A DNA stretch of 64,000 bases from Alcaligenaceae bacterium (GTDB taxonomy: Bacteria; Pseudomonadota; Gammaproteobacteria; Burkholderiales; Burkholderiaceae_B). Positions 21,528 to 54,593 of this stretch are shown in pieces. A program made the position numbers and the translations under genes. How positions within the stretch are numbered: the first letter of the stretch is position 1; each line of letters opens with the position of its first letter. The DNA lies in NCBI GenBank assembly GCA_030538235.1, contig JAUNUJ010000002.1:124001-188000 (forward strand). The letters are read 5' to 3'. Under the pieces are notes generated by a model. It was not told the DNA's origin. It ran no database searches and was given only the letters and a program-made list of their open reading frames with translations.

Positions 21528-21530
21528 AAA

Positions 21531-22493: not shown

Positions 22494-22496
22494 TTA

Positions 22497-23372: not shown

Positions 23373-23401
23373 TCTAAGCTACTCCAATTTCGTCCAGATT
23401 G

Positions 23402-26189: not shown

Positions 26190-26206
26190 TATTTGTCTCC
26201 AATTTT

Positions 26207-27337: not shown

Positions 27338-27367
27338 AAAAACTCCTCCTTCATTTATTGTTTTTAG

Positions 27368-28120: not shown

Positions 28121-28135
28121 AATCTCTAGTTCCTT

Positions 28136-29569: not shown

Positions 29570-29600
29570 GTTATCTCCTTCACGATTTAGATACTTTTTA

Positions 29601-30257: not shown

Positions 30258-31000
30258 TATTGCTCCCCCAAAACTTCCGAACGAATCATCGGGTTATTTA
30301 GAACTTCTTCTGGAGTTCCATCTGCCACTATCCGCCCAGAAATCCAAGCCGCGACACGTGTGGCATATTTTTCTACAATTTCTTCATCATGCTCAACAAA
30401 CCAGCTTGTCACATTCCTTTCTGACAACGCATCCATAATCATTGTCATCAGTCCGTGTTTTTCTTCAGCAGCAACACCACTTGTAGGTTCATCCATAATC
30501 AAAAGTTTTGGACGCAATGCTAATGCCATTGCAACATCGAGTAATTTTCTCTTTCCTTCCGGCAAATCTGCAGACAACTTATTAGCGTCCTCACTAAGAC
30601 CTACTAGTCTCAATGTTTCATTGATCTCGTCTGGATCAACAGAGTTAAATAACGATTTAAAGTAGGTTAAATTGCCATTCCTACTTGCCGTGGATAACTC
30701 TATGCATTCTCTAACAGTATGTTCTGTAAATAACTGCGGCAACTGGAATGATCGACCCAATCCAAGTCGAACTATTTTTCTTGGAGAAACACCTGTTATA
30801 TCTTGACCATCAAAGTAAACCTTACCTGAATCAGGTTTCAAAAAACCGGTGCAGATATTGATAAAAGTCGTCTTGCCTGCGCCATTTTGGCCAATAACTG
30901 CAAGGTTCTCACCTTCATACAGTTCAAAATCTATACTATCGGCACCCATCACACCACCAAACTTGAGCGATAACTGTTCAGTTTTAACCAACGGTTTCAT
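30257..31000 (-). CDS. HAAT-type ABC transporter ATPase 2 (LivG-like)
   Basis: The 247-residue ATPase has Walker A GQNGAGKTT near 38, Walker B LLIMDEPTSGV and the switch WFVEHDEEIVEKYA. The ABC signature is unusual: LPEGKRKLLDVAMAL instead of LSGGQ or LSYGQ, so the two conserved Gly are reduced to one. Such variants occur in LivG-like proteins and the rest of the fold is normal, so it is likely active. It overlaps its neighbours by one base on each side. Confidence 0.87.
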   Translation of the reverse strand: MKPLVKTEQLSLKFGGVMGADSIDFELYEGENLAVIGQNGAGKTTFINICTGFLKPDSGKVYFDGQDITGVSPRKIVRLGLGRSFQLPQLFTEHTVRECIELSTASRNGNLTYFKSLFNSVDPDEINETLRLVGLSEDANKLSADLPEGKRKLLDVAMALALRPKLLIMDEPTSGVAAEEKHGLMTMIMDALSERNVTSWFVEHDEEIVEKYATRVAAWISGRIVADGTPEEVLNNPMIRSEVLGEQ

Positions 31001-31941
31001 TATCTCGCCCTCTTCTTATCTTCTTGACGTTTAATAAACTCACCAACAACTCCTCGCGGCACCAAAAATATAACTAAAATGAGTGTAATTCCTAAAATTG
31101 TTTGCCAGAACTCAGGGAAATATGCAGACGAGAGTAATTTGACACTTTCAAAAATTGCTGCCCCTACAAAGGCTCCAGCAGCATGAACAGCACCACCCAA
31201 GATAGTAATAAAGACATATTCTCCTGAACGCAACCACATACCTATTTCAGGTGTAACAAGCCCCTGTATCAGAGCAAGAAGCGCCCCTGAGAAGCCAACG
31301 ATCGCAGCGGATAAGATATAACCCTTCAGCATTACTCGGTGTGCTGACACTCCCAAATACTCCAAACGAGTTTCATTTGTTTTAATCGCGGATAGTGCTT
31401 CACCATTACCGGACTTGAAATAACGCTGGACTACAGCAGCCAATAAAAGAGAACCTAAAATGGTAATAACTAGTAAAATAAGCTCAAATTCAGTACGTTC
31501 GAATTCAATACCAAAAATCGTTGGACGAGAAATTCTAAGCCCATCAGTACCTCCTGTAATCTCGTACATTTTTCCTAAAAGTGCAAATAAGACCATACTC
31601 AAAGCTAAATTCAACATGCCGAAGAAAATACTACGATACTTGACAACGAAAACCCCGACCAATGCACTAAATAGCGTACTTATAACCACACTAACCACTA
31701 TCAATACCACAGTATCTGTACCTGGATAAGCTCTAGCAATAAACGCTAATGAATAAGCTGCAATACAAGCATACATAGCATGACCAAATGATATTTGCCC
31801 TGCCCTAGCCATAACAGAAACACCTAAAGCTGCAATACCATATGTCAACCCAATGATTAGAGGTGTCACAAACCATGGATTTAAGTAGGCAAAAATAAAC
31901 GCAATTACGGCCAACAATAAACTAACAATAGCGATTCTCAT
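31000..31941 (-). CDS. HAAT-type ABC transporter permease 2 (LivM-like)
   Basis: The 313-residue membrane protein has about eight or nine helices, with ARAGQISFGHAMYACIAAYS near residue 45 and the ATPase-contacting loop AIKTNETRLEYLGVS near 190, where the usual acidic residues after AI differ from set 1. It ends with an extension of charged residues. It overlaps the LivH-like gene by 4 bases. Confidence 0.9.
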   Translation of the reverse strand: MRIAIVSLLLAVIAFIFAYLNPWFVTPLIIGLTYGIAALGVSVMARAGQISFGHAMYACIAAYSLAFIARAYPGTDTVVLIVVSVVISTLFSALVGVFVVKYRSIFFGMLNLALSMVLFALLGKMYEITGGTDGLRISRPTIFGIEFERTEFELILLVITILGSLLLAAVVQRYFKSGNGEALSAIKTNETRLEYLGVSAHRVMLKGYILSAAIVGFSGALLALIQGLVTPEIGMWLRSGEYVFITILGGAVHAAGAFVGAAIFESVKLLSSAYFPEFWQTILGITLILVIFLVPRGVVGEFIKRQEDKKRAR

Positions 31942-32843
31942 ATTTTTCTCGTCTCCGCAACCGTGAACAACCCATTAGGTCGAATAATTAGAACTAGGAC
32001 CATGATGATATATGGGACGGCGACTTCAATCTCAGGCACTGTATAAATCGCAAACGAGCGTGCTACACCTATAAGTAAAGCTGCAATTAAGGCACCTGTA
32101 ATTTGCCCTAATCCGGCTGTTGCAACTACCGCAAACGATAAAACAATCATTTCGGCACCCGCTCCAGGTACCAATGATGTTGTTGGTGACGCTAAAGCTC
32201 CCCCTAAAACTCCTAAAATAGCACCGATCAAAAACGTGACATAAGCAATCTTCTTAGCATTAACACCTAAGGTGGTTGCAACCTCACGATCATGGGTAAT
32301 AGCTACAACCTGTTTTCCAAGTTTTGTCTTTCGCAAAAAGAAAACCAAACCCAAATAAGCAAAAAATGCTGTTGCTGGAACAACAATTAGTTGGTACGTC
32401 GTATATGTGATATTGCCAATCTCAATATTGCCAAAACTGCCCACTACTTGACTTGCAGAATATGGTTGTGCTCCCCAGATAACTTTTTGTAGATCCTCTA
32501 AAATCAAAAAGGCTCCGAAAGTCAAAAGCAGTTTTAATATTGGATCGTATTTCAAAGATCTTTTTACTAGAGCCAATTCAAAAATACTTCCCAAAACTGC
32601 ACCTATTACTATTGCCACCAAAAATAAAAGCAACAAAAGAATTAATGGTGATTGAGTCTTCGCATAAACCAATCCAACAGCTGTTGCTGCGGCATAACCC
32701 CCATAAGCATAAAAAGCTCCGTGGGCAATGTTTAAAATACCCATCACACCAAAAATAAATGTCAATCCCAACGAAACGAGGAAAAGTAAGCCAGCGTATG
32801 AAAACCCATCCACAAAGGCGATCATGATTAAATCAATACTCAA
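31938..32843 (-). CDS. HAAT-type ABC transporter permease 2 (LivH-like)
   Basis: The 301-residue membrane protein opens with the LivH pattern FVDGFSYAGLLFLVSLGLTFIFGVMGILNIAHGAFY and has AITHDREVATTLGVN near 190 as the ATPase-contact loop. It is the first gene of the minus-strand block that runs down to 20111, and the 730-base AT-rich stretch upstream should hold the promoter of the whole set. A GGAG-like site precedes the start. Confidence 0.9.
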   Translation of the reverse strand: MSIDLIMIAFVDGFSYAGLLFLVSLGLTFIFGVMGILNIAHGAFYAYGGYAAATAVGLVYAKTQSPLILLLLLFLVAIVIGAVLGSIFELALVKRSLKYDPILKLLLTFGAFLILEDLQKVIWGAQPYSASQVVGSFGNIEIGNITYTTYQLIVVPATAFFAYLGLVFFLRKTKLGKQVVAITHDREVATTLGVNAKKIAYVTFLIGAILGVLGGALASPTTSLVPGAGAEMIVLSFAVVATAGLGQITGALIAALLIGVARSFAIYTVPEIEVAVPYIIMVLVLIIRPNGLFTVAETRKI

Positions 32844-42057: not shown

Positions 42058-42660
42058 TTATTAGAGCAAAGAATGCACACCGTAGACTACGTTTTACGGT
42101 GTGCTAAAGGGCTCATCTTCGGCAGCCTATCATTTTATGTGCCACAAGCCGGAGCCATCCGCTTACTTGCCTCGACCCTGATTTAAGCCTTGTTTTATTA
42201 AAAAGTGCAAAGAGTTTTTAACTAAACACCTCTTTAACTCCGGGCAATCTGCACTCCCATCAAATGCCTCTCCTAGCCGTCCCGGATCTTAATCAAAAAT
42301 TTCAAACTTAAACAAATAGACACCTTGCCTGATCTAACTAAGGAAAAGTGCATCACAACTCACAGCTAATCGCTTTAATTTTAAACATCTGGCGACACTG
42401 AAGGCAATTGCCCTAATAAGGATACCTAAAAAAGCCCTAAGGCTATGATTACTATAATAAAATCATCATTAACCGACATAACGTAAAGCATCGCTAACGA
42501 TCGCTGTTTGCTCGCACATCGCAGCTAGCAACAAGTCTCCTTGACTTACATCAGAACTATCTTAATAAACACGACTTATTTGTCACAAAAGTGAGTAACA
42601 AGTTGTTATGCTTTATAATTAAATTGAAACTTCATTTATTCAATAACTAAGGGGGTAGTT
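42058..42660. other. 603-base gap between fadB and the TMEM43-like gene
   Basis: Apart from the hairpin at 42075-42104 nothing was identified. No frame of useful length has a ribosome site. This is where a fadA gene would be expected and it is not present. Confidence 0.6.
42075..42104 (+). terminator. hairpin after fadB
   Basis: A perfect 10 bp stem (42075-42084 with 42095-42104) with a 10-base loop, 18 bases after the fadB stop. There is no T-run, so it may act as an mRNA 3' end stabiliser or a factor-dependent stop. Confidence 0.55.
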
Positions 42661-43992
42661 ATGGCATACGAAGAACGCAAGACGAAGTCGTGGGGATCCA
42701 AACTTGGCGATGGTCTTAAGTCAGTTGTAATAGGTTTGATTTTAATTGTTGTCGCTACCGCTCTGCTCTTTTGGAACGAAGGCAGGGCAGTTAAGACAGC
42801 TGATTGTATTAATGAGGTTGAAAGTGTTTATGTTACTTTACCCGATATTAATACGCTAAACAGTGAACTCAATGGCACCGTAGTCTATGCCCAAGGCAAC
42901 GCACAAACTGAAACCGTGCTAGAGGATGGGCGTTTTAATATTCAAAAAAATGCTTTGTCGCTACGTTATAGCGCCGAGTACTACCAATGGGTAGAGACCA
43001 AGACTGAGCGTGAAGAAAAGAATGTGGGTGGTTCTAGTGAAGTGATCACTACCTATGACTATGAGAAGCGCTGGGTTACCCAACCTGTGGATTCATCTAA
43101 TTTTAAGCAATCTGAGACTCACCACAACTTCATTTTAATGGAAGTGGACACAGACACTATCTATGCAACGGATGTCAATCTAGGTGCCTATCAATTGCCT
43201 GATTTTCTTTATAAGGGAATTAAAGCCAGCGAGCCATTAGCCCTTGAGTTTGATGAAGAAACTTATGCTGAATATGCGCAAGCACTTAAAGCGAATATCA
43301 CTGCTTTGACGACAGTCCAAGGCTCACAAAACATAATCACAACGGGTGAGTTCGATGTTTTAACGCCAGAGGCTATAGGGCGAGAGTATGTTCACGTCAA
43401 ATCTGATTCAGTATATATCGGTCGTCATAGTTTAAGTCCTCAAGTGGGTGATGTTCGGATCAAAACTAGCTATACCCCGGCATCGACACCTATTGCGATG
43501 GTAGCCATGCTAAATGGCAATACCTTTAGCAAGTTTGTGGGTAAGGCGTGTAAAGATGGTTATGAATACAGTTCCATTTACGATGGTCAAAAAACCGCAA
43601 CAGAAATTTTTGAAAGTAATCGTCAAGAAAACTCCATGCTCAAATGGGGCCTTAGATTTGTTGGTCTGTTCTTGCTATTTATCGCTTTCGGAATGTTCTT
43701 CAAATTAGGTGAGGCCTTATTAGATGTGCTGCCTTTCTTGGGTAACGCCTTCAAATACGCAGGCAATATGTTAGCGGGTCTGCTGGCCTTAGCTTGGACA
43801 CTGGTGGTCATTGGTATTGGTTGGCTTTATTATCGACCAATCCACTCGATAATTCTCTTTGCAGTCGCTGCTGGCTTAGTGTTCTTAGGCTATATGCTAC
43901 GCAAAAAACGCAAAGAGCAAGTCCTAGCAGCAAGTGCAGTTGCATCACCCGGTGATGCCAAAACCATAGGTCAACAAGATCTCGGAAACTAA
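42661..43992 (+). CDS. TMEM43 family membrane protein
   Basis: The 443-residue protein matches the TMEM43/DUF1625 family: one N-terminal membrane helix (about residues 20-40) leading into LLFWNEGRAV, a large extracytoplasmic domain (45-325; YYQWVETKTEREEKN, YDYEKRWV), then three or four helices close to the C-terminus (328-412) and a charged tail. The bacterial role is unknown; the human homologue is an inner nuclear membrane protein. A GGGGG ribosome site is 6 bases before the ATG. A strong hairpin separates it from the secreted-protein cluster. Confidence 0.85.
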   Translation: MAYEERKTKSWGSKLGDGLKSVVIGLILIVVATALLFWNEGRAVKTADCINEVESVYVTLPDINTLNSELNGTVVYAQGNAQTETVLEDGRFNIQKNALSLRYSAEYYQWVETKTEREEKNVGGSSEVITTYDYEKRWVTQPVDSSNFKQSETHHNFILMEVDTDTIYATDVNLGAYQLPDFLYKGIKASEPLALEFDEETYAEYAQALKANITALTTVQGSQNIITTGEFDVLTPEAIGREYVHVKSDSVYIGRHSLSPQVGDVRIKTSYTPASTPIAMVAMLNGNTFSKFVGKACKDGYEYSSIYDGQKTATEIFESNRQENSMLKWGLRFVGLFLLFIAFGMFFKLGEALLDVLPFLGNAFKYAGNMLAGLLALAWTLVVIGIGWLYYRPIHSIILFAVAAGLVFLGYMLRKKRKEQVLAASAVASPGDAKTIGQQDLGN

Positions 43993-44048
43993 AGCCCTTT
44001 TGCCAAACTTTACATAGAACAATTCGGCTTTTAAACACACCCATCCGG

Positions 44049-44124
44049 GAGCAGGAGCAACTAATAAAACTCATCAGTCATCACAAAAAAAGTACTGATA
44101 AGCATTGTTGCCCCTGCTCTTTAG
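44049..44124 (+). terminator. long hairpin terminator after the TMEM43-like gene
   Basis: A 13-base arm (44049-44061) pairs with 44107-44119 at 12 of 13 positions, with an inner 6 bp stem, followed by a short T-run. It divides the TMEM43-like gene from the next cluster. Confidence 0.6.
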
Positions 44125-44239
44125 TTAGACCGGATAGGCTGCACTCAACAAGAAAAAGCTCATTCTGTTGTATCTGCAAAAAAGCCGTTTATGTATCTCT
44201 ATTTCTTTTAGAAGTTCTACACATTAATAGGTGAATTTT

Positions 44240-45310
44240 ATGAAAAAACTACTAACGACTGTCATATGCGTGTTGGCATTGCTAGGCGCTGTCAGCCATG
44301 CCCAAACCAAGGAAAAGGTGCTTCTTGACACCGATATGGTTGAGGTATTTGACGACGGCATTACCATGATGATGCTAGCCAATGCACCAAACATTGATTT
44401 ATTAGGCATCAGTATTGTGGTTGGCAATACGTGGGTGCCTGAGGGAACGGCTTATACCATTCGCCAGTTGGAGGCCATTGAACGCACTGATATTCCAGTT
44501 GTACCTGGGATACGTTTTCCACTTTACCCAAACCGTCATGACAATATGAAGCATGAAATGGCTTTATTTGGTAATGGCGACGGTTATCTAGGGTCGGCCG
44601 GTTATGCAGAGCCTGAGTCATGGCAGTCGGTTTATCAAAAAACCTATCAGCGTGAGCCGACTGTACAACCTTTGGATATGAAAGCGGTTAATTTCATCAT
44701 TGACCAAGTCAAAGCCAACCCTAATGAAGTCACTGTATTAGCGATTGGCACGTGTACCAACTTGGCCACCGCGGTACGTATTGCGCCGGAAATTATTCCT
44801 TTGATTAAGCGTGTGGTGTATATGGGAGGTTCATTCTTTAAACCCGGCAATACCACCCCGACTGCGGAGTTTAACTGGTGGCTCGATCCTGATGCGGCTA
44901 AGATGTGCTTGCGCACTCCCTTTAAAGAGCAAGTAATCGTCGGTTTAGAGGTATCAGAAAGTATTCCTTTTGTAAAAGACCGCTACGATCATCTTATCGA
45001 TATCACCCAAAACCCTGACATTAAGGAAATGTTGACACGTAACTTCCTCAACGGTATTTACGCTGAAAATCCGGACTATGTTCATTTCATCTGGGATGTG
45101 ATTGCGGGCGCCATTGTGATTGACTCCAGTCTTATTACAGAAGAAGTCACACGTCATGTCGATGTTAATGCTCAATTCGGATCTTCCTATGGTGAGTCCA
45201 TAGCATTTACCGAAAACCCACCCTTAGGCACACAGCAGGCACGTATTATTTTAAAGGTAGATACTGATCGCCTGTGGAAAATGATCGAAGATGCCATGGC
45301 GAAGTTTTAA
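44240..45310 (+). CDS. exported inosine-uridine-type nucleoside hydrolase
   Basis: The 356-residue product has a signal peptide (cleavage after SHA, residue 21). The hydrolase metal site opens the mature part: DTD at 30-32 and two Asp at 38-39 in VFDDG. It continues with VLAIGTCTNLATAV and GGSFFKPGN, then FNWWLDPDAA and a terminal FIWDVIAG in place of the usual His-Asp pair. These enzymes split nucleosides into base and ribose. Export is unusual and fits periplasmic salvage; the 5'-nucleotidase 1 kb downstream would supply nucleosides. The ATG at 44240 is preferred over the GTG at 44231, which would have no space for the AGGTG site. Confidence 0.85.
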   Translation: MKKLLTTVICVLALLGAVSHAQTKEKVLLDTDMVEVFDDGITMMMLANAPNIDLLGISIVVGNTWVPEGTAYTIRQLEAIERTDIPVVPGIRFPLYPNRHDNMKHEMALFGNGDGYLGSAGYAEPESWQSVYQKTYQREPTVQPLDMKAVNFIIDQVKANPNEVTVLAIGTCTNLATAVRIAPEIIPLIKRVVYMGGSFFKPGNTTPTAEFNWWLDPDAAKMCLRTPFKEQVIVGLEVSESIPFVKDRYDHLIDITQNPDIKEMLTRNFLNGIYAENPDYVHFIWDVIAGAIVIDSSLITEEVTRHVDVNAQFGSSYGESIAFTENPPLGTQQARIILKVDTDRLWKMIEDAMAKF

Positions 45311-45331
45311 CTGACAGTCAAAGGTTCTGAT

Positions 45332-46075
45332 ATGAAAAAACTGACGTCTTTTCCCGCTTTAACCGCTCTAGCCATCGCCTTGGCTACTCCTGTTTATGTT
45401 GCCGCGCAATCACCGGCTAATCAGTCAAGCTATGCGCAAAGCAACATGGCTATTCAAGCAACAGTCACGGGTGGCTATAGCATACCTACCCAAAAATCAA
45501 ACGATGGTGGTAGTGTGACTATTACTCGTTTGCCAACGACGGTGGAGGAATTCAAGGTCTTACGTCAACAAATCGCAGACGAACCGCATGGAGCGGCAGC
45601 AGCTTTTGTGGTGGCATTACAAATGTATCTGGAAGATGCCGAAGTGGGTGAAGAATGTCTAGCAATGAGTGTGACACCTAGTCAACGCAATACCGGAAAC
45701 CCTAAAAAACTCGCATCGGTAGGTCAAATTATCCGTCATCGCTATCACCCTTCCAATACAGGGTCTTCGGTGTATTCGCCATGGATACCTTACAGTGTTG
45801 TTGAGGGATTCGAGCTCAGTCAAGATTGGCAAAAGCCCGAACCACCGTATCAGATGTTTTTTGGACACAACCCCGGTCGTGACAACATGGATCAATCTGG
45901 CAGTAGTAGTTTTGAGGGTTATGCCATTCCCATGACCATCGACGCCTTTAACAATACGACCAGCGAGCGCAGCCGCTACCGTAATGTCACTGCGGTCAAG
46001 GTCAAGGGTGAAACACAGTATGTCTTATCAGATTTCGATAACTTAATAAGTACCGCTTCTTATAAGCGTCCTTAA
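45332..46075 (+). CDS. unknown exported protein
   Basis: I do not recognise this 247-residue protein with certainty. It has a signal peptide (to about VAAQ, residue 26), a Gln/Ser-rich linker, then a domain with the pattern LPTTVEEFKVLRQQIADEP and AAAAFVVALQMYLED (about 70-112), followed by a Cys and a polar part rich in Asn, Ser and Tyr (SPWIPYSVVEGFE). I have seen similar TTVEEF/ALxMY patterns in secreted proteins of Bacteroidetes, but cannot confirm. It lies 21 bases after the nucleoside hydrolase gene, so it is in the same transcript. Confidence 0.7.
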   Translation: MKKLTSFPALTALAIALATPVYVAAQSPANQSSYAQSNMAIQATVTGGYSIPTQKSNDGGSVTITRLPTTVEEFKVLRQQIADEPHGAAAAFVVALQMYLEDAEVGEECLAMSVTPSQRNTGNPKKLASVGQIIRHRYHPSNTGSSVYSPWIPYSVVEGFELSQDWQKPEPPYQMFFGHNPGRDNMDQSGSSSFEGYAIPMTIDAFNNTTSERSRYRNVTAVKVKGETQYVLSDFDNLISTASYKRP

Positions 46076-46102
46076 TTTACATTTAAATTCTAGGTTAAAC
46101 GT

Positions 46103-46318
46103 ATGAAAGTAATGGTCAATCAGATTGAGTTAACGATTTTTACTGGCGCAACGGTTGCCGATGCGCTTCGTGCTTATTTTACGTCTCAGAACCAGCGCGC
46201 ACCCTGTCCTTTACCGGAGGTACGGGACAGGTATGGCAATGAAGTTGCCCACGATGGCGCCCTCACCGAGGGATGTCAACTGATTATCCAAGAGAGTGAT
46301 GACAATGAAGATGATTAA
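46103..46318 (+). CDS. small beta-grasp-like protein (ThiS/MoaD resemblance)
   Basis: The 71-residue product begins VMVNQIELTIFTGATVADALRAY, the usual opening of ubiquitin-like ThiS, MoaD and [2Fe-2S] domains (two strands, then a helix), and ends in an acidic tail ESDDNEDD. It lacks the C-terminal Gly-Gly used for sulfur transfer and has a single Cys, so neither known job fits. There is no signal peptide, making it the only probably cytoplasmic product of the cluster. Its end overlaps the start of the nucleotidase gene by 14 bases, so the two are co-translated. Confidence 0.65.
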   Translation: MKVMVNQIELTIFTGATVADALRAYFTSQNQRAPCPLPEVRDRYGNEVAHDGALTEGCQLIIQESDDNEDD

Positions 46319-47792
46319 AAAAATACTTAGCTTGCTAGTAGTGACGGTTTTAGCAAGTTGCGGCACCAGCCAACAGGTGACTGAGCACACCGCAACAACC
46401 GGGGTAGAAACACCCGTGGTGCGAGAAGCAACCATTTTAGCCGTCAATGATATGCATGCAAACATTGATGACTTCCCTAAACTAGCCTATATAGTGGATG
46501 AGTTACGGGCACAACATCCTGATATGCTGTTAGTTTCTGCGGGCGACTATCAGACAGGCAACCCCATGAACGACCAATATGAAGAGAAAGGCCGACCGAT
46601 CATCGAATTAATGAACGTGCTTAAATTCGATCTCACGGCCGTGGGCAATCATGAGTTTGATTTAGGCATAGAAAGCTTTGAAAAGCACACGAAGCTTGCC
46701 AATTTTGAGCATATTTCCGCCAATATGAGTTGGCCAAAAAACAGAAACTTGAATGTTAAACCCTATAAAACCTTGACCCTAGCCAATGGCTTAAAACTGG
46801 CGTTTGTTTCCGTCATTGATTTAAATGAGAGAATGCAGCCGGATGCGCACCCCGATCGTCTCAGCGAATTCAAGTTTACTGACCCTTATACAACAGCTCA
46901 ACAATACTTGCATTTAGCAGATGAGAGCGATGTGTTGATTTATATGACACATCTTGGCTTTGAAAATGATGTGAAATTAGCCAATAGCTTTCCGACTGGT
47001 GTGGTGGATTTGATTATTGGCGGACACTCGCACACCAAAGTGGATACTGAGCAAATTCACAATGACGTTTTAATCACCCAAGCACAAAATCGCCTTAAAT
47101 ATGCCACCTTAATCCGCTTAAAAGTTTATGCCGACGGCTCTATCGAACGCGCCATGGAGTTACTGCCTGTTGCTGCAAGCAAAAATGAGCAAAGCGCAAT
47201 GAAATCCTTGGTGGATAAGTACAACCAAAATCCCTACATGATGGAAGTGCTTGCTAAAGCGCCCAACGATTTCCGCACCCGAGAAGAAATCGCTTATTGG
47301 ATGGCAGATGCCATGAAAACCACGGCTCAAACCGATATCGCTATCATCAACCGTGGCGGGGTACGTATTGATGAGTTAGCAGCGGGTGATATCACACGTA
47401 AAACGCTCTTCTCCATTGACCCTTTTGGTAATAGCCTCGCTACCGTCAATATGACCGGGCATGAGTTACAACGCTTTATTAGCAATATGTTTAGTCAGGA
47501 TGATTACCGATTTATGTATCCAGCCGGTCTACGCTTAAAGTACACCACAGCGGATAACAATAGCAAATTAGTCAATCTAGAGTTATTTAATGAAGATGGC
47601 ACACCCTTAGATATGGATAAGACTTATCGTGTGGCAACGTCTTCTTATGTCTTGTCAGTTGTTAAATATGACCGCAAAGATCCAGGTCAAAGCTTAACAA
47701 TCACCTCAACCGAGGGATGGATTGATTGGTTATTAGATGGTGCTGAGGTCAAAGACTATCAGACCGTAAAGCGCACCTATGTCAATGAATAA
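46305..47792 (+). CDS. lipoprotein 5'-nucleotidase / UDP-sugar hydrolase-type metallophosphatase
   Basis: From the ATG at 46305 the product has 495 residues with a lipoprotein signal, LASC with Cys19 as the lipid anchor. The metallophosphatase domain shows NDMHAN (usually ND-x-HG), SAGDYQTG, GNHEFDLG and GGHSHTK; the C-terminal 5'-nucleotidase domain has INRGGVRIDELAAGDITRKTLFSI and TGHELQRFI. It would remove phosphate from extracellular nucleotides at the membrane surface. Other in-frame starts (46296 GTG, 46299 ATG) lie too close to the AGAGAG site. It shares 14 bases with the ThiS-like gene. Confidence 0.9.
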   Translation: MKMIKKILSLLVVTVLASCGTSQQVTEHTATTGVETPVVREATILAVNDMHANIDDFPKLAYIVDELRAQHPDMLLVSAGDYQTGNPMNDQYEEKGRPIIELMNVLKFDLTAVGNHEFDLGIESFEKHTKLANFEHISANMSWPKNRNLNVKPYKTLTLANGLKLAFVSVIDLNERMQPDAHPDRLSEFKFTDPYTTAQQYLHLADESDVLIYMTHLGFENDVKLANSFPTGVVDLIIGGHSHTKVDTEQIHNDVLITQAQNRLKYATLIRLKVYADGSIERAMELLPVAASKNEQSAMKSLVDKYNQNPYMMEVLAKAPNDFRTREEIAYWMADAMKTTAQTDIAIINRGGVRIDELAAGDITRKTLFSIDPFGNSLATVNMTGHELQRFISNMFSQDDYRFMYPAGLRLKYTTADNNSKLVNLELFNEDGTPLDMDKTYRVATSSYVLSVVKYDRKDPGQSLTITSTEGWIDWLLDGAEVKDYQTVKRTYVNE

Positions 47793-47812
47793 TCCATCTA
47801 AGGCTTATTAAA

Positions 47813-48523
47813 ATGAAAAACTTCACCTTATCATTACTATTCCTAGGGCTTGTGGGCGGCTTTCAGGCTGCCGCTGCACAGCCTGTCGATACTTACTCAA
47901 GTGAAGACCCGCTTGTCGAGTTGGTGGCGCAATACACGCCTGAGCAATTAAATCAACGTATTGCCAAAGCCAAGCCCGCTGATATTAGGGATCTTTTATT
48001 GCTATTACCCGACAGCGATTTTCTGTTTTATTTTAATTTTGATGCAACTCAACGTAAGCAACTACTGGCTGGTGAAACGGTTTCCTATGTCACAATAAGT
48101 GAAATTGATGTCGCTCATGGCTACTTACAAAGTGGCTATGAGGGCATTTGGGAAATGATCGCTAAAGCCGAGGGAGATGCATGGCAGATTGCACTTCACG
48201 AGCGTAATTGCGGTCAGTACTGCTACACGGTGATGCAAAAGTCATATCGTTACCAAGACGGCAAGCTATTCGCACAACATGCGGCCACGATTGCCGGTTT
48301 CCAAGACTATTGGCCTGAACTGTTTATTGACTTTGAACAATTGACTCAGGAGCAAAAAGACACGGCCAGGCAAATCTGGGAAGATCATGGTATTGAGGGA
48401 GTTTTGTATAACTTACCACGTGATGGGCAGTCACCTATCGTAGTTTATCTTGATGAGGCGCGCTATACCGATGCAGGCATTCCTGAGTCAGCCCTGATGG
48501 AAGTCACTGAGAATCAGGAGTGA
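47813..48523 (+). CDS. unknown exported protein with WEM motif
   Basis: This 236-residue protein has a signal peptide (to about AAAAQ, residue 22) and a mature part without a known fold. Its middle reads ADIRDLLLLLPDSDFLF, then an R-x-x-LL element, then IDVAHGYLQSG and a WEM triplet. The same pattern (VKTLFQQLPE, GFLSLELPDGDTWEM) is in the protein at 51104, so they are distant paralogs. There are three Cys in ERNCGQYCYT, a possible disulfide. It follows the nucleotidase gene by 20 bases and is in the same run. Confidence 0.7.
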   Translation: MKNFTLSLLFLGLVGGFQAAAAQPVDTYSSEDPLVELVAQYTPEQLNQRIAKAKPADIRDLLLLLPDSDFLFYFNFDATQRKQLLAGETVSYVTISEIDVAHGYLQSGYEGIWEMIAKAEGDAWQIALHERNCGQYCYTVMQKSYRYQDGKLFAQHAATIAGFQDYWPELFIDFEQLTQEQKDTARQIWEDHGIEGVLYNLPRDGQSPIVVYLDEARYTDAGIPESALMEVTENQE

Positions 48524-48550
48524 GCTCGAATTAACCTAGGAGTGTAAACC

Positions 48551-49315
48551 ATGCAACGCTTTATTAAGCCTATTTTATTGGCGCTTTTAAGCTGGCAGTT
48601 ACCAGTCGCTTGGGCGCAAACAGAAGCAAACTTTCCAAATTTCACTTGGGTCACACCTAATATCGAACATGAAAGCTCTCGCTTTGGTTTTGAGCCGGCG
48701 TCCTTCACCTTGGTCAATCAAGATTGCAGAAAAGTAGCCAAAGACCACCCTTGTTATGAAGACCTTGAGTGGACTGAAAACATTTTATTAGGCACCTATC
48801 AAAACGCCTCCATGCCTAAGCCTGTGCATATTATTTATTCACCGGGCCCAAGCGCTGATCCTTTGTTCTCAATCATTGATCAAAGCAATCAACGTATTTG
48901 GTCTGAAGGCGCAGAACAAATGGCGATTAATTCTAGCGGGGTGATTTATCTCTCGGGCAATGCCAATAAAATGTTTAATCAGCGGATGAAGTTTCAGTTA
49001 AGTAATTATCAGGTAAAGGAAATACCGCAACCTTATTATTACGTGGATGTCAGGGGGTCATTGCTAAAACCGGTCAAGCTTTATAGTCAGCCCAATAACC
49101 AAGGTCAACTCATCGCGACCTTGTCTGTTGGTTATGACATTGAGATTTTACTGGCGGCAACCACTCCACAGGCGACTAGGGACGACGAATTTTCATTAAG
49201 CAAAGACTATCTTGCAAAAACCGCCTTTGGTCTGGTGGGCTGGTTGCGCCTAACTGATGACGACACGTTTCATATGAATCCTATCGTGCCAGGTCTAGGC
49301 TTTATGGGTGATTAA
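48551..49315 (+). CDS. exported protein with C-terminal SH3-like domain
   Basis: The 254-residue product has a signal peptide (to AWA, residue 22) and an unknown N-terminal part containing two Cys. In the last 80 residues is a bacterial SH3-like fold: VDVRGSLLKPVKLYSQPNNQGQL, a VGYDIEIL strand and the closing GLVGWLRL. Such domains bind peptidoglycan or proteins in the envelope. An AGGAG site precedes the ATG. It lies 27 bases after the preceding gene in the run. Confidence 0.7.
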   Translation: MQRFIKPILLALLSWQLPVAWAQTEANFPNFTWVTPNIEHESSRFGFEPASFTLVNQDCRKVAKDHPCYEDLEWTENILLGTYQNASMPKPVHIIYSPGPSADPLFSIIDQSNQRIWSEGAEQMAINSSGVIYLSGNANKMFNQRMKFQLSNYQVKEIPQPYYYVDVRGSLLKPVKLYSQPNNQGQLIATLSVGYDIEILLAATTPQATRDDEFSLSKDYLAKTAFGLVGWLRLTDDDTFHMNPIVPGLGFMGD

Positions 49316-49332
49316 CACCACAGGAGAGAGGA

Positions 49333-50355
49333 ATGACAAAATTTCATCGACTAGTCATTGGTGTTTTATGCTTTTTTATGAGTCATATGCTCTATGCACA
49401 AAGGTGGAACGCCGCCCCAACAACACCGCCCTCTCAAGAGGTGCAAAAGTTTTTTTACGGCTCACTTCTCAGCCATCAGGTGTATATTCAGCTAAATTTT
49501 GCCGCTGATGGCCAAATCACTGGGGCTGTGGGTTCCGATGAATATACGAACCTGGCTCAGACTGTTCCCTTTACGGCACAACAAAGCGATCAGGGCTTGC
49601 AAGTAAGTTTTGCCGAAGATCCCCCTGCAGTCGGTAAGGCCTCTGATTGGTTATTAGATAAGGCTTGGTCACTAGAAAGCAACGGCAATCAAGAGGTGCT
49701 TTACATACCCATGATGGCTAGGAATTATGAGACCTCGACATGGGAGGAGACGATCTTCGAGTATCCGTGCGTGGACGATAACTTACAGTCAATCGTTATC
49801 ACCCCCCAAATGCCTGAGGACGCGCCGGAGCTTCCCCCCTATCGCTGGAGCTCTGCCGCAATCGATTCTTCAGAAGGTGGCAATACTCATGCCCTACTAA
49901 TAGAACCCCTTAACACGCAGCGCAAGGGCGTACTGATTCAACGCGAAGGCTCCATGTTTGTAGAGGCTGTGATTGGCCACCATGTCGTGCTGAGTCTAGG
50001 CACCGGGGTAGTGCTAGATCTGGAGGTAATTGATTTGGCCTTGCTTCAAAGCACTCGCTTAAAAAATGTCAGCTTACTAAATGAGATTACCGTTGATCCG
50101 AACCGAGGCGGCTTTAGTTTTTATAATTATGCGGGTGATATGCCAATCGTCGTGTGGAATGCCGCAACTAGGGTATGGGAATCTGATACGGACATCCCTG
50201 AAACGCTTTTCAATGATGACTTTCATCGTGTAGTAGAGCAACTGCCTGAACGATGGAATGGGCTGAAATTAGCGGTCATGCAAAAAGTCCATGTCGATCT
50301 GGAAACACTAGCGACAGAGTTTTTAGATGAGTATCAGTGGTTTTATATTGAATAA
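49333..50355 (+). CDS. unknown exported protein
   Basis: The 340-residue product has a signal peptide (cleavage near LYAQ, residue 23) and no fold I recognise. After QVQKFFYGSLL it is mainly beta-strand in character with short loops: VYIQLNFAADGQITGAVG and later FSFYNYAGDMPIVVW. It contains one Cys. A strong GGAGAGAGGA ribosome site precedes it. The opening FYGSLLSHQVYIQLNFAADGQITG resembles strand-rich secreted proteins that report on chemical structure, but no function follows from it. Confidence 0.65.
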   Translation: MTKFHRLVIGVLCFFMSHMLYAQRWNAAPTTPPSQEVQKFFYGSLLSHQVYIQLNFAADGQITGAVGSDEYTNLAQTVPFTAQQSDQGLQVSFAEDPPAVGKASDWLLDKAWSLESNGNQEVLYIPMMARNYETSTWEETIFEYPCVDDNLQSIVITPQMPEDAPELPPYRWSSAAIDSSEGGNTHALLIEPLNTQRKGVLIQREGSMFVEAVIGHHVVLSLGTGVVLDLEVIDLALLQSTRLKNVSLLNEITVDPNRGGFSFYNYAGDMPIVVWNAATRVWESDTDIPETLFNDDFHRVVEQLPERWNGLKLAVMQKVHVDLETLATEFLDEYQWFYIE

Positions 50356-50459
50356 GGCGCTTGGGCTTGCGTATGAAATCCCATTTGAGTCGTATTTCAA
50401 GACGGCTAGGCTAGGAAAACTCTATGCACAGCTTAAATTGATGGTGAGGTAACAAACAA

Positions 50460-51092
50460 ATGAAAACTAAACTATGGTCCTACCTTTTAACCGTGCTTTG
50501 TTGCTTTGCCTGCGCCCAAGTGCAGGCCGAAACAAGCTTAGATACTAAACACACCGAACAATTTATATCTAAATCTTTTGAACTTAGCACAGAAGAACAA
50601 CAAAAAATCGAGGCTATCTTAACGCGTGAAAACAATCACCCAAGCTATCAAGTGTGGAGCTACGCCACTAGCTTAGGGCGTTTTATCTTTAGCAGTTATG
50701 GTCTTAAACAATCGTTTACCGTTTTGGATGGTGCGTCGTCTGAGTTCCCATATCTGGCCATTTTCGACTTGGCAGCAGAACAGCGATTACCCAACACTAA
50801 AGCAACCCTAGCCCTCATCATGGGTGAAATAGATCTGTTTAATCAGCCGGCTTTTTCCGATCAAGAGATTATCATGCTGATTTCAAAAGTATTGTTCAAT
50901 GACACCGTGTTAACAACGGATTACCAATATTTTGATGAGGCTCAACCACCGGTGGTAGAGCGTAACAAAGAGCGGATTAAATGCGTCTTTTACGCGGTCA
51001 TATCAGACAGCCCGATGACTCAGCCAAGAGCGCAAAAACACGAGGTGCTCATTGATCAGACGTTTAATGTTACCGTCACAGCACTGCCTTAG
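50460..51092 (+). CDS. unknown exported protein
   Basis: This 210-residue protein has a signal peptide (to QAE, about residue 24) and is otherwise unfamiliar. Its mature part is mixed helix and strand with few charged patches. The stop is TAG and overlaps the AGGAGG ribosome site of the next gene. It begins after a 104-base gap, the largest in the run apart from the 148 bases before the repeat-protein gene. Confidence 0.6.
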   Translation: MKTKLWSYLLTVLCCFACAQVQAETSLDTKHTEQFISKSFELSTEEQQKIEAILTRENNHPSYQVWSYATSLGRFIFSSYGLKQSFTVLDGASSEFPYLAIFDLAAEQRLPNTKATLALIMGEIDLFNQPAFSDQEIIMLISKVLFNDTVLTTDYQYFDEAQPPVVERNKERIKCVFYAVISDSPMTQPRAQKHEVLIDQTFNVTVTALP

Positions 51093-51103
51093 GAGGCGAT
51101 TTC

Positions 51104-52027
51104 ATGAAGAAAATCATATACCTACTTAAACTCTTTTTCCTAAGCTCATTGTTGATGGTCGCAGCAACCACGGTCTCAGCACAACCAAAGGCTGATGTTA
51201 AAACCTTATTTCAGCAATTGCCTGAGATCGCATTCCAATTTCTACCTTCAAACAATCCAGCTGAACTTGAGCGCTATATTAACGTTAACGATCCTCGCCA
51301 TGGCTTTCTTAGTTTAGAACTTCCTGATGGGGATACGTGGGAGATGACTCATTGGAATTTGAAAAATGGTGATAAGTTAGTTGCTGTTAGTGTTGATTGG
51401 GCTTATATTTTTTTTCATTATCACAAAGGTCAAATGACGCTCACCAATCAATTTGGACTCGAGCAAATTGATGAGGATATCGGGTCCAGTGAGGCTTGGA
51501 ATAATTTTGATAATGCCCTTCGTTTTAGTCTACCAAGACGCGGCACATCACTTTATTTCGATTTAAATGGCATGATCCCCTTGGTTTATCAATGGCATGC
51601 TGAGCGTTTTGTTCGAGTCGAGGCTTATCCTCCCGAAAACCCAACAGAAGAAACCCTTATTCAAGGCTTTATTAGCGCAGTTAAGGCAAAGGATATTGAC
51701 CGTAGTATCCAATATCTATTACCTAGCTATGTATCAGCACAGGGCATGAAAATGTATGAAGGCGATCTTGAAAGACTCGTATGTGAAATACTTAATGGTC
51801 AAGATGCGCAAGGCAATTTCATCACGCCAAACAAATTTACTGAATTCAAAGCAATTAGCTATCGACCTGAGACAAAGACATTTCACGTTGAGCTCAATAG
51901 CGGACAAAGCTATCAAGTAGAGCCCACTCTTCAGCAGATTGAAATCCGAGAGTCACGAGAAACACCCGATGATCCACCAGGTAAATTATTAAAAACCATT
52001 CCTTTTCTTGTCGGTGCAGTGGGTTAA
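51104..52027 (+). CDS. unknown exported protein with WEM motif
   Basis: The 307-residue product has a signal peptide (to SAQ, about residue 27). Its first domain shares the pattern DVKTLFQQLPE - GFLSLELPDGDTWEMTHWNLKNGDKLVAV with the gene at 47813; the second half (from about 195) is acidic and helical with QGFISAVKAKDIDRSIQYL. I recall proteins with the WEM-WNLKNG pattern from Bacteroidetes, which is unconfirmed. A perfect AGGAGG site overlaps the stop of the gene before it. Confidence 0.65.
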   Translation: MKKIIYLLKLFFLSSLLMVAATTVSAQPKADVKTLFQQLPEIAFQFLPSNNPAELERYINVNDPRHGFLSLELPDGDTWEMTHWNLKNGDKLVAVSVDWAYIFFHYHKGQMTLTNQFGLEQIDEDIGSSEAWNNFDNALRFSLPRRGTSLYFDLNGMIPLVYQWHAERFVRVEAYPPENPTEETLIQGFISAVKAKDIDRSIQYLLPSYVSAQGMKMYEGDLERLVCEILNGQDAQGNFITPNKFTEFKAISYRPETKTFHVELNSGQSYQVEPTLQQIEIRESRETPDDPPGKLLKTIPFLVGAVG

Positions 52028-52175
52028 ATTGTTAGGAACTAGCGAATTACTAAATGAGCAAAGACAATTGAAGCGCTTCTTATGGTTATGCCGAGATGCC
52101 CCAGCATCCACAGCTGATACTGAGAGTGCCGGCTTATTGTACGGTTAAGGGAAATTCATATGGGGGAGTATGACG

Positions 52176-52607
52176 ATGAAAAAAATCACTAAACAATTGA
52201 TAACTGTTTGCCTAGCTTTTTTAATAGCGGGCCTCGCACAAGCACAGCATACCCTGCGTGATACAAACGGCAGCCAATTAGGTCAAATTCAATCAGACGG
52301 CACAGTACGCAACGCCTCCGGCAACGCCATGGGTCGCATCGATTCAGGTGGCTCTGTGCGTAATGCCAGTGGCAATTTGCTTGGCCGCATTGATGGGGAT
52401 GGCACGGTACGCGATGCATCGGGCAGCCGCCTTGGGCAAATCCAATCAAATGGCACAGTGCGTGACGTGACGGGTAGCGTTATCGGTCAAATTGATCACA
52501 GCGGCACAGTGCGTGATGAACGAGGCAATCGGATAGGTCAAGCTTCCGGCAGTAATCAGCGGATGATTGGTGCCAGTTATTTTTTCTTCTTCTTTAATGG
52601 AAATTAA
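52176..52607 (+). CDS. exported protein of six 17-residue repeats
   Basis: From the ATG at 52176 the product has 143 residues: a signal peptide (to QAQ, residue 24), six tandem units of 17 residues (26-127), each close to TVRDASGxxLGQIxSDG, and a tail with five Phe. The GTVRDxSG-x-x-(I/L)G-(R/Q)-I pattern would form a stack of short beta-strands, like a solenoid. Glycine and polar residues fall at the turns. Such repeats are found in surface or cell-wall proteins; here no anchoring signal is seen. The ATG at 52170 is in frame but only two bases from the GGGGAG site, so the second is used. Confidence 0.7.
   Translation: MKKITKQLITVCLAFLIAGLAQAQHTLRDTNGSQLGQIQSDGTVRNASGNAMGRIDSGGSVRNASGNLLGRIDGDGTVRDASGSRLGQIQSNGTVRDVTGSVIGQIDHSGTVRDERGNRIGQASGSNQRMIGASYFFFFFNGN
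52251..52556 (+). repeat. six tandem 51-base coding repeats
   Basis: The region codes for six 17-residue units. The DNA copies are diverged (for example GGCACAGTACGC versus GGCACAGTGCGT), so this is an old amplification kept by selection on protein rather than a recent slippage. Confidence 0.85.
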
Positions 52608-52609
52608 CT

Positions 52610-54499
52610 ATGAAAAAAATCTTTTACCTTATCCTAGCGTCATTGCTTGCTATCAACTTGATGGCGGGTGCCGGACGTACGCAGACTGCAACGATTAGTT
52701 TTGAGACAGTTGAGATTGAAGAGCATATACAAATCATAGCTGATGGGGATGAAAGCTCTCCCAATGCTACATTTGAGCTGACCATGAGTCATCCCAATCG
52801 CTTTAATAATAAACAGGATTTAAAAAGTTTGCAGCAGCTCATAACCGCTAAGGTGCTTGGCGATGACTATGCCAACTATCCTAATTTGGAGGCAGCAATT
52901 AGTAGCTATTTGGTAGCTTATGAGCGTGAATACCGCGACAATTTAAGCGATTTCTTTGGTGATGATTTAACAGAGATGTTAAATGATCATCCCGTCGCTT
53001 TGTATCATTCCAACGCCATCAACCAGACTATCGATTATCAAAATGACCATATCCTCAGCTTTACAGTGGAACATTCGGTGTATCAAGGAGGCGCTCATGG
53101 TCTCAGCACCCAAAGACACTATTCGATTAACCTCAAATCAATAGAGGAATTGACGCTGTCACAACTGATGAAGCCTGGTTACGAGGCAGAGCTGACAGAG
53201 ATAGTTAAACAAAATCTGCTGCAAATCAAAGCCGAGAAATTCAAAGCCTATCAAGATAAGCTGTCCCAACTGGACGAGCAGACGCTTAAAGAGTCCTTTT
53301 TCAACTACGATGAAATCACCTTGCCCGATAACTTTATGCTGACCGATATGGGTTTGGCCTTTACTTACAATCCCTATGACATTGATGCCTATGCCGCAGG
53401 ATCGTATGAGGTGGATATTGCCTATGCTGAGGTGGCGCATTTAATGAATCAACCCGTTGTACAGCGCTTATTACCTGAAATCGATGTACAAGCCGCCCAC
53501 AGTCATCTTGATCCCACTGAGCTCAACTACGACGGTTACCATAATTCACGTTATGACTTTGAGGTGCAATACCCTGATTTTTTAATCCCCCAAGGGGAAT
53601 CCGAAACAGGAGATGGGCAGCGCTTTATATCAAGTGATGGCGATTATGTGATGTCGGTTTATCGAGATTTTAAGGCCTTAACCGGTGAGAATCCATCGTT
53701 ACAAGATGCCTATTATGCCGAGATTGGTGGTTTATCTAATATCTTGTACGATAAGCTGAGCGATAATTACTATTGGTTTCAAGGCAAAACCAAACGTACT
53801 CGCCATTATCAGCAGTTTACTTTCTTGATTCAGGATGAGTATTTTACTCTTTATATAGAGTACCCTCTAGCGGCTGAAAATACGCTGCAAGCTATCATCG
53901 AACACATCGCTGACTCTTTTTCTTTGGCTGACGCTGAGACAGGCGCTGAGACTAGTACTATGTCTGAAGAGCAAAGTGATGAATTTGTTTTTTTCTTAAA
54001 TGAGTTTCTACAGTCGACTTATTGGAATAAAAACTTCAATGCGATATTGCGTGACAATGATGAGCAACTAAGCACGTTCCTCGATCCCGGGGTGGATGTG
54101 CGACGCTACCATAGTCCTGGCGCCGTGCCCCATTTATATGCCCGTGCAGATAATTTCGGTTTTGATCACTTGACGGATTTTGTAACCCCTCTAGAGCCGG
54201 GGGGTGAAAATTCTTTTGCCGAAATGACAGCTGATATGTCAGTATGCGAGTTGAATTTTGAATCCACAGGGTTCATCACTGTATATTATGCTCCTAGCAC
54301 ATGGGAATTTACTGCGCTAGTTAATCCTGAAACCTTTGATTTTGCGCCCATCCCCTCACCCTACCCTGAGGCTACCGTGATGCAAGTGTTTGTCCCTAAA
54401 TATTATCAAGGTTTTGTTAACCCACGTGGTCTGTATTTTATTCAAAGTCCTGAGGGTTGGAAGCTTATGTTTGTGGATGATTCACTTTGTGGAGGATAG
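52610..54499 (+). CDS. exported DUF3298-domain protein
   Basis: The 629-residue product has a signal peptide (about 24 residues) and an N-terminal domain of the DUF4163/DUF3298 kind (PdaC/RsiV-like): VEHSVYQGGAHGLSTQRHYSINL with EELTLSQLMKPGYE at about 155-200, and VDIAYAEVAHLM near 275. RsiV-type domains bind lysozyme or act on peptidoglycan. The remainder (300-629) is unknown and contains a long acidic linker and a C-terminal beta-rich part with Cys residues. It follows the repeat-protein gene by 2 bases and is the last gene of the run. Confidence 0.75.
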   Translation: MKKIFYLILASLLAINLMAGAGRTQTATISFETVEIEEHIQIIADGDESSPNATFELTMSHPNRFNNKQDLKSLQQLITAKVLGDDYANYPNLEAAISSYLVAYEREYRDNLSDFFGDDLTEMLNDHPVALYHSNAINQTIDYQNDHILSFTVEHSVYQGGAHGLSTQRHYSINLKSIEELTLSQLMKPGYEAELTEIVKQNLLQIKAEKFKAYQDKLSQLDEQTLKESFFNYDEITLPDNFMLTDMGLAFTYNPYDIDAYAAGSYEVDIAYAEVAHLMNQPVVQRLLPEIDVQAAHSHLDPTELNYDGYHNSRYDFEVQYPDFLIPQGESETGDGQRFISSDGDYVMSVYRDFKALTGENPSLQDAYYAEIGGLSNILYDKLSDNYYWFQGKTKRTRHYQQFTFLIQDEYFTLYIEYPLAAENTLQAIIEHIADSFSLADAETGAETSTMSEEQSDEFVFFLNEFLQSTYWNKNFNAILRDNDEQLSTFLDPGVDVRRYHSPGAVPHLYARADNFGFDHLTDFVTPLEPGGENSFAEMTADMSVCELNFESTGFITVYYAPSTWEFTALVNPETFDFAPIPSPYPEATVMQVFVPKYYQGFVNPRGLYFIQSPEGWKLMFVDDSLCGG

Positions 54500-54530
54500 A
54501 CAGTTAGGTATGCCGCTTCGCTGAGCAAAC

Positions 54531-54569
54531 AACATGCCGACCATCACACGTCGTGAAAGTCGGCATGTT
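54531..54569. terminator. hairpin between the secreted cluster and cyaY
   Basis: A perfect 11 bp stem (54531-54541 with 54559-54569) between two converging genes. The T-run is weak on both strands, so it may serve as a two-way mRNA end. Confidence 0.55.
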
Positions 54570-54593
54570 ACAAAAAACGGCTTTTGAAAATAT

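What the first reader, a model, noticed from the sequence alone, without database searches (positions are those of the whole stretch)
44240..54499. Run of eleven mostly exported genes around a nucleoside hydrolase and a lipoprotein 5'-nucleotidase
Eleven plus-strand genes follow one another with gaps mostly under 30 bases and no terminator inside. Ten have clear signal peptides or a lipobox. Two enzymes make a two-step extracellular route (nucleotide to nucleoside to base plus ribose), and at least eight others have no recognised function. I know of no described system with this content; it could be a surface-bound nucleotide scavenging machine or an envelope structure.
Basis: partly seen in the sequence, partly recalled or inferred. 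Interest (0 to 1): 0.75.

Follow-up and report, generated by a model that had tools for sequence, protein, structure and literature searches.

The report
Transferred Bacteroidales nucleotide-degrading envelope gene block
A beta-proteobacterium of the Alcaligenaceae type carries a block of twelve mostly exported genes that came from Bacteroidales-type bacteria; its two recognisable enzymes would break nucleotides down outside the inner membrane, and most of the other genes belong to families without a known function.

Summary
Eleven plus-strand genes (44240-54499), ten exported, are under 30 bp apart or overlap at 8 of 10 junctions; two gaps are 104 and 142 bp. A nucleoside hydrolase (NH) and a lipoprotein 5'-nucleotidase (5NT) are confirmed. 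The unit is larger: a TMEM43 gene (42661-43992) belongs to it, and the whole block is foreign. Four same-genus contigs have the 3HCDH and cyaY ends 86-103 bp apart where the window has 12.5 kb. The NH is 69-71% identical to Bacteroidota proteins; the best Pseudomonadota match is 34%. The 5NT tree nests the block inside Bacteroidales (100/100). dN/dS is 0.06-0.28 for all twelve genes. Eight Bacteroidota genomes keep three to nine of the families together; some adjoin band-7/LemA/TPM membrane genes. The 71-aa third gene and the 5NT form a conserved pair (19 of 21 loci). Most likely the block degrades nucleotides in the periplasm for salvage, helped by accessory envelope proteins; coupling to envelope maintenance is the main rival. 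No defence, toxin or mobile-element genes were recognised.

The parts
42661..43992 (+). TMEM43 family membrane protein (443 aa), first gene of the inserted block
   Evidence: PF07787 2.3e-62; present at the same place in L003, absent from four empty sites; block-family genes lie beside 3 of 6 strong Bacteroidales TMEM43 loci
43993..44239 (+). intergenic leader with a long hairpin, conserved in L003
   Evidence: 85% identity over 247 aligned bases; MFE z -4.1 in the window, -1.7 in L003, same central hairpin; no Rfam match
44240..45310 (+). g1: exported inosine-uridine type nucleoside hydrolase (356 aa)
   Evidence: PF01156 3.9e-62; PDB relatives RihB/YeiK
45332..46075 (+). g2: exported DUF6935 protein (247 aa)
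   Evidence: PF22043 2.1e-14
46103..46318 (+). g3: 71-aa protein without signal peptide, conserved partner of the 5NT; beta-grasp-like by eye only
   Evidence: 22 of 393 Bacteroidales genomes; 5NT adjacent in 19 of 21 loci examined
46305..47792 (+). g4: lipoprotein 5'-nucleotidase (495 aa)
   Evidence: PF00149 and PF02872; PDB 2z1a, UshA; lipobox LASC
47813..48523 (+). g5: exported protein, paralogous to g9
   Evidence: no Pfam family; profile hits link g5 and g9
48551..49315 (+). g6: exported protein whose family has a C-terminal bacterial SH3-like part
   Evidence: SH3_3 in 2 of 18 family members, best 2.8e-7, not in the window copy itself; 14 of 393 Bacteroidales genomes
49333..50355 (+). 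g7: exported protein, no known family; truncated by a deletion in L003
50460..51092 (+). g8: exported protein, no known family; least constrained gene of the block
   Evidence: dN/dS 0.279
51104..52027 (+). g9: exported protein, paralogous to g5 with an extra C-terminal part
52170..52607 (+). g10: exported 5-fold beta-flower protein (145 aa)
   Evidence: PF21785 7.9e-27
52610..54499 (+). g11: exported protein; N-terminal DUF3298/PdaC-like half fused to a C-terminal half that is a separate gene in L004 and L006
   Evidence: PF11738 2.9e-14, PF13739 1.3e-06
42058..42660 (.). left end of the insertion (after the 3HCDH stop); 65% identical to L003 overall, the last ~70 bases before TMEM43 best conserved
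54500..54593 (.). right end of the insertion up to the cyaY stop; inverted repeat 54531-54569 is probably the old shared terminator
   Evidence: similar hairpin in the empty site L093

Best explanation
A Bacteroidales-type envelope gene block of about 12 kb (TMEM43 plus eleven genes) was acquired by an ancestor of two lineages of one Alcaligenaceae-type genus and is kept by selection. Working model: the 5'-nucleotidase, lipid-anchored (by the +2 rule, recalled, to the outer membrane), strips phosphate from nucleotides in the periplasm; the soluble nucleoside hydrolase splits the nucleosides into base and ribose; bases enter through the host's own xanthine/uracil-type permeases. The 71-aa cytoplasmic partner of the 5NT, the paralogous pair g5/g9, the SH3-bearing g6 and the DUF3298-PdaC protein act as accessory binding or scaffold proteins of the envelope. 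Shown: the block, its origin, its selection, the enzyme families. Inferred: substrates, location, that the proteins work together, and every role given to g2, g3 and g5-g11.
For: Insertion: L091, L092, L093 and L094 have 3HCDH and cyaY 86-103 bp apart, the window and L003 have the block there. Origin: NH 69-71% identical in three Bacteroidota genomes; among 299 Pseudomonadota genomes (own included) the best other match is 34% over 341 residues, with shorter pieces up to 48%; 5NT best other match 30% over 396 residues among 219, shorter pieces up to 42%. The 5NT tree nests window and L003 with three Bacteroidota rows at 100/100 and inside a set of eight at 100/100. Selection: dN/dS 0.056-0.279 for 12 of 12 genes, window against L003 (for g7 only the 130 codons that L003 keeps). 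Enzymes: PF01156, PF00149, PF02872; motifs aligned to solved relatives. Host has two PF00860 permeases. Cluster kept in L003, L004, L006 and others.
Against: No permease, phosphorylase or kinase lies in the block. The NH is rare: 1 of 213 Bacteroidales genomes at E <= 1e-40, so the two-step pair is not the general context of the 5NT. In the NH the active-site histidine of RihB aligns with a tryptophan. g3, the most constant partner, is not exported. No search suggests a part in nucleotide degradation for the other ten proteins. g6 stands without any other block family in 11 of 14 Bacteroidales genomes, within the stretches held. Relatives sit beside membrane-stress-type genes, which favours the rival.
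Confidence: 0.5

Rival explanations
1. Envelope maintenance or stress module: in the donors the block is the periplasmic arm of a membrane system of band-7 (SPFH), LemA, TPM/DUF2207 and TMEM43 proteins, and the nucleotide enzymes clear or read extracellular nucleotides as a damage signal rather than feed the cell.
For: L040 (G063): band-7, DUF6935, zinc-ribbon-like, LemA, TPM, NH, DUF6935, g3, 5NT in one run on one strand. L028: TMEM43, g3, LemA, DUF2207, g6. L081: TMEM43, g3, 5NT, DUF6935. L120: DUF6935, DUF3298, TMEM43. TMEM43 is over cut-off in 7 of 393 Bacteroidales genomes and 3 of the 6 strong loci adjoin block families. Band-7, TPM and zinc-ribbon proteins partner PspA in envelope stress (passages of PMC11237479; of PMC8581546).
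Against: The window block has TMEM43 but no band-7, LemA or TPM gene. The other 3 of 6 strong TMEM43 loci (L118, L119, L121) show no block family. No PspA was seen or sought in the donors. TMEM43 is split from the run by 247 bp. No stress promoter was identified.
Confidence: 0.3
2. Loose cassette: Bacteroidales genes of unrelated envelope functions that happened to move together and are each useful by themselves.
For: g6 alone in 11 of 14 genomes; g3-5NT without other block families in 16 of 19 pair loci, within the stretches held (all but L072, L081, L090); gene order is only partly kept between L004, L006 and the window.
Against: Nine families within 20 kb in L004 and seven in L006; order NH, 5NT, g5, g6 kept in both; all twelve genes under purifying selection after transfer.
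Confidence: 0.15
3. Defence or competition island (immunity proteins, nucleotide-depletion defence).
For: Exported proteins of unknown family; paralogues g5/g9; patchy distribution (2 of 61 genomes).
Against: PADLOC on ten of the twelve proteins gives one weak match (g3, E 0.013); no toxin-like domain by Pfam; the enzymes are exported.
Confidence: 0.05

Closest known systems
Nucleotide salvage by UshA-type 5'-nucleotidase and nucleoside hydrolases (RihA/B/C)
   Same: Same enzyme families and the same two chemical steps
   Different: Neither enzyme reaches an NCBIfam equivalog cut-off (UshA 158.9 of 600; UriH 117 of 450); both are exported and encoded in one run with nine other genes; Rih enzymes are cytoplasmic (recalled)
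PspA-YdjGHI type envelope modules (band-7, TPM, zinc ribbon)
   Same: Donor-type locus L040 has band-7, TPM, LemA and zinc-ribbon-like genes in the same run (the zinc-ribbon label is mine)
   Different: No PspA seen or sought; the window block keeps only TMEM43; nucleotide enzymes are not part of the modules in the passages read
ThiS/MoaD-like small beta-grasp proteins (for g3)
   Same: Size and strand-helix-strand pattern, by eye
   Different: No C-terminal diglycine in any of 25 aligned members; no PDB match up to E 1

Membership tests
5'-nucleotidase (metallophosphatase plus 5_nucleotid_C) | both domains, above cut-off | tested here: met
   PF02872 97.3 and PF00149 54.6 bits against cut-offs 23.6 and 21.5
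5'-nucleotidase (metallophosphatase plus 5_nucleotid_C) | motifs GD, GNHEFD, GGHSH | tested here: met
   aligned with 2z1a; NDMHA read from sequence; roles recalled
UshA orthologue | NCBIfam equivalog cut-off | tested here: not met
   158.9 bits, cut-off 600
Inosine-uridine nucleoside hydrolase | PF01156 above cut-off | tested here: met
   211 bits, cut-off 34.2
Inosine-uridine nucleoside hydrolase | Asp cluster DxD...DD and TPxAEFN motif | tested here: met
   aligned with 3b9x; two extra residues between the Asp pairs
Inosine-uridine nucleoside hydrolase | active-site His beside the last Asp | tested here: not met
   IWD against VHD in 3b9x; roles of the residues recalled
ThiS/MoaD sulphur carrier (g3) | C-terminal Gly-Gly | tested here: not met
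   25 aligned members
PspA-YdjGHI envelope module | band-7, TPM and zinc-ribbon genes in the run | tested here: not met
   absent from the window block; band-7 and TPM present in L040
PspA-YdjGHI envelope module | PspA | not tested
   not searched in the donor genomes
Polysaccharide-utilisation locus | SusC/SusD pair | tested here: not met
   no such family among the block proteins
Anti-phage defence system | PADLOC model match | tested here: not met
   ten of twelve proteins scanned (not TMEM43, not g10); only g3 at E 0.013
Integrative element or transposon | integrase/transposase or terminal repeats | tested here: not met
   none among the block proteins; no direct repeat of 16 bp or more pairing the two ends

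The most novel reading that the evidence does not exclude
An undescribed envelope system in which a prokaryotic TMEM43 membrane protein, a 5NT with its small cytoplasmic partner, a nucleoside hydrolase and several new families of exported proteins work as one unit that couples extracellular nucleotides to envelope upkeep, and that can be moved whole between phyla and still be kept by selection.
Probability: 0.25. Interest if true: 0.75.

Novelty: new variant of a known kind. Interest (0 to 1): 0.5.

Why it matters
It is a clean, testable case of an envelope gene block crossing phyla (Bacteroidota to Pseudomonadota), with an empty site in sister genomes, selection on every gene since, and proteins that look like lipoproteins in the relatives but like soluble exported proteins here. 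It also gives a genomic context to prokaryotic TMEM43, whose human relative is a disease gene (passages of PMC7889174), and shows a conserved two-gene unit (71-aa protein plus 5'-nucleotidase) in Bacteroidales for which my paper searches (one open-licence library, top rows only) turned up no description.

Tried and rejected
Assembly chimera: rejected. The block lies inside a 364-kb contig between genus-typical genes, and another record (L003) has both junctions. G007 holds both an empty-site contig (C83) and the occupied C198, so that bin is probably mixed; the count '2 of 61 genomes' (2 of the 8 of the genus) leans on it.

Mobile element or phage cargo: no integrase, no terminal repeats, no plasmid match for g6, 5NT matches in 28 phage records, all under 60% identity and 23-27% in the five listed, no viral contig for the NH. 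Other block genes were not searched there.

Bacteroidetes Q-rule (PMC5837995, abstract and outline; PMC10653852, search listing) as proof of origin: a crude signal-peptide detector gives Q at +1 in 5 of 9 block peptides of the window and in 6 of 51 host calls from 20 stretches and the window's flanks. The detector takes in membrane proteins, and several convincing host peptides have Q too, so I use it only as a hint. No PF05096 glutaminyl cyclase in the host; other cyclase types were not sought.

Folds of g3, g5/g9, g6, g11C: profile searches of PDB sequences gave nothing significant (best E 0.12-0.41, none for g3). g7 and g8 were not searched there.

RNA family of the leader: none (two matches elsewhere, below gathering). 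Literature: TMEM43 with LemA 0 papers, LemA/TPM/SPFH/PspA 0, DUF6935 0, NH plus nucleotidase plus Bacteroides 26 papers, none of the 8 listed relevant by title and abstract, transfer search 1 paper, not relevant by abstract.
Full report
What is there. Eleven plus-strand genes run from 44240 to 54499. Eight of ten junctions are under 30 bp or overlap, two are 104 and 142 bp. By eye nine products carry a type I signal peptide (a crude detector agrees); the 5NT has a lipobox; the 71-aa g3 has neither. Pfam gives the NH (PF01156, 3.9e-62), the 5NT (PF00149 and PF02872), DUF6935 for g2, 5-fold beta-flower for g10 and DUF3298 plus a borderline PdaC for g11. g3, g5, g6, g7, g8 and g9 match no family above cut-off. 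g6 relatives show a C-terminal SH3_3 domain in 2 of 18 members. g5 and g9 are paralogues by profile.

It is a foreign block. The window lies in a 2.43-Mb genome of 14 contigs; the close relative L003 is titled 'Alcaligenaceae bacterium'. In four contigs of the genus (L091, L092, L093, L094) the 3-hydroxyacyl-CoA dehydrogenase gene (3HCDH) and the convergent cyaY end 86-103 bp apart, with ponA upstream in the three that reach it; in the window 12.5 kb holding TMEM43 and the eleven genes separates them. L003 has the block with the same left and right neighbours. Of the other genomes of the genus, G003 (L095) breaks off inside cyaY, G005 (L096) has another order, and G004 gave no cyaY match. Of 61 genomes searched for g5 (own included), only the window's own and G007 have it; by contig number and coordinates G007's copy is L003. 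G007 also has an empty-site contig and is probably a mixed bin.

Donor. Window proteins match L004, L005 and L006 (Bacteroidetes, Petrimonas and Bacteroidales records), from 29% to 71% identity by gene. The NH is 69-71% identical there. Among 299 Pseudomonadota genomes (own included) the best other NH match is 34% over 341 residues, with short pieces up to 48%; for the 5NT among 219 it is 30% over 396 residues, short pieces up to 42%. A maximum-likelihood tree of 38 5NT rows puts window and L003 inside the Bacteroidales-type rows (5-row and 8-row sets at 100/100), apart from the 14 best-matching Pseudomonadota rows.

It is kept. Between window and L003, dS is 0.36-0.67 and dN/dS 0.056 (NH) to 0.279 (g8) for twelve genes, g7 over the 130 codons that L003 keeps. 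g7 is cut short by a deletion in L003, so it may be dispensable in that lineage. The 247-bp leader before the NH is 85% identical and folds to the same central hairpin in both, though only the window copy is markedly more stable than its shuffles (z -4.1 against -1.7).

Conserved neighbourhood. Eight Bacteroidota genomes keep three or more block families together. L004 (G062) holds NH, g3, 5NT, g11C, g5, g6, g9, g7 and the DUF3298 half within 20 kb, with a g8 remnant. L006 (G064) holds NH, 5NT, g5, g6, DUF3298, g3, g11C. G331 (L027, L090) holds g6, two g5/g9-type genes, 5NT, g3 and a g7 part. L072 (G179) holds g9, g3 and 5NT beside a TPM gene. G063 holds NH, DUF6935, g3 and 5NT on one contig (L040) and g11C, g5, g6, g9 on another (L005). 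L028 (G416), L081 (G215) and L120 (G306) join TMEM43 to two or three of the families. g3 occurs in 22 of 393 Bacteroidales genomes; I examined 21 of these 22 loci: 19 have the 5NT on the same strand within 310 bp (18 of 19 with g3 first), one has it 3.6 kb off in the same cluster, one lacks it. On the other side, g6 occurs in 14 of 393 genomes and 11 of these show no other block family in the stretches held; 16 of the 19 g3-5NT pairs stand without other block families; and the block-type NH was found in 1 of 213.

How it most likely works. Family membership and aligned residues support a 5'-nucleotidase and a nucleoside hydrolase, both outside the inner membrane, giving base, ribose and phosphate. 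The NH has tryptophan where RihB has its active-site histidine (role recalled), which may change substrate choice. The host has two PF00860 permeases that could take up bases. The rest is inference: g6 (SH3) and g11 (DUF3298/PdaC) may bind cell wall, g5/g9 may bind ligands or partners, g3 may help to make or regulate the 5NT.

The main rival. In L040 the run continues into a band-7 protein (PF13421, 1.1e-91), LemA (4.1e-58), TPM (1.4e-26) and a zinc-ribbon-like protein that Pfam does not name. Such band-7/TPM/zinc-ribbon sets partner PspA in envelope stress (passages in PMC11237479 and PMC8581546). [quoted passage not shown] if the donor TPM proteins act so, the donor run would hold ATP-to-AMP, AMP-to-nucleoside and nucleoside-to-base steps. 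This is speculative. TMEM43 is rare in Bacteroidales (7 of 393 over cut-off, six strong). Three of the six strong loci carry block families and three do not, so its place in the window block is hardly chance.

Difference from the relatives. g5 (L004, L005, L006), g7 (L004, L090), g11C (L004, L006) and the DUF3298 half (L004, L006) carry a lipobox by pattern or by eye; the window and L003 copies do not. Two genes that are separate in L004 and L006 are fused into g11. Whether these changes came before or after transfer is not known.

Verdict. Its function is open.

Noticed in passing
window 43993-44239: Intergenic leader with a long conserved hairpin, single copy in the genus (found in 2 of 8 genomes), no Rfam family.
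   Followed up: partly
L003:7511-7921: g7 is truncated by a deletion that brings it next to the start of g8; the other ten genes of the run are full length.
   Followed up: partly
G007 contigs C83 (L094) and C198 (same coordinates as L003): One genome bin holds both an empty and an occupied site, so it probably mixes two lineages.
   Followed up: partly
window 52610-54499: g11 is a fusion of two genes that are separate in L004 and L006.
   Followed up: yes
L004:16192-16332: Piece matching the C-terminal part of g8 shortly after g7, in the same order as in the window.
   Followed up: no
window 20111-32843: Low-GC (0.36-0.42) run of minus-strand genes; the ten proteins scanned are branched-chain-type ABC transporter parts, two binding proteins and three dehydrogenases; ordinary, possibly also acquired.
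   Followed up: partly
L072-L090: The 71-aa protein plus 5'-nucleotidase pair is a conserved two-gene unit in Bacteroidales; neighbours shared by 5-6 of 19 loci look like housekeeping genes by eye.
   Followed up: partly
window 54531-54569: Inverted repeat between the block and cyaY resembles the hairpin in the empty site L093, probably the old shared terminator.
   Followed up: partly
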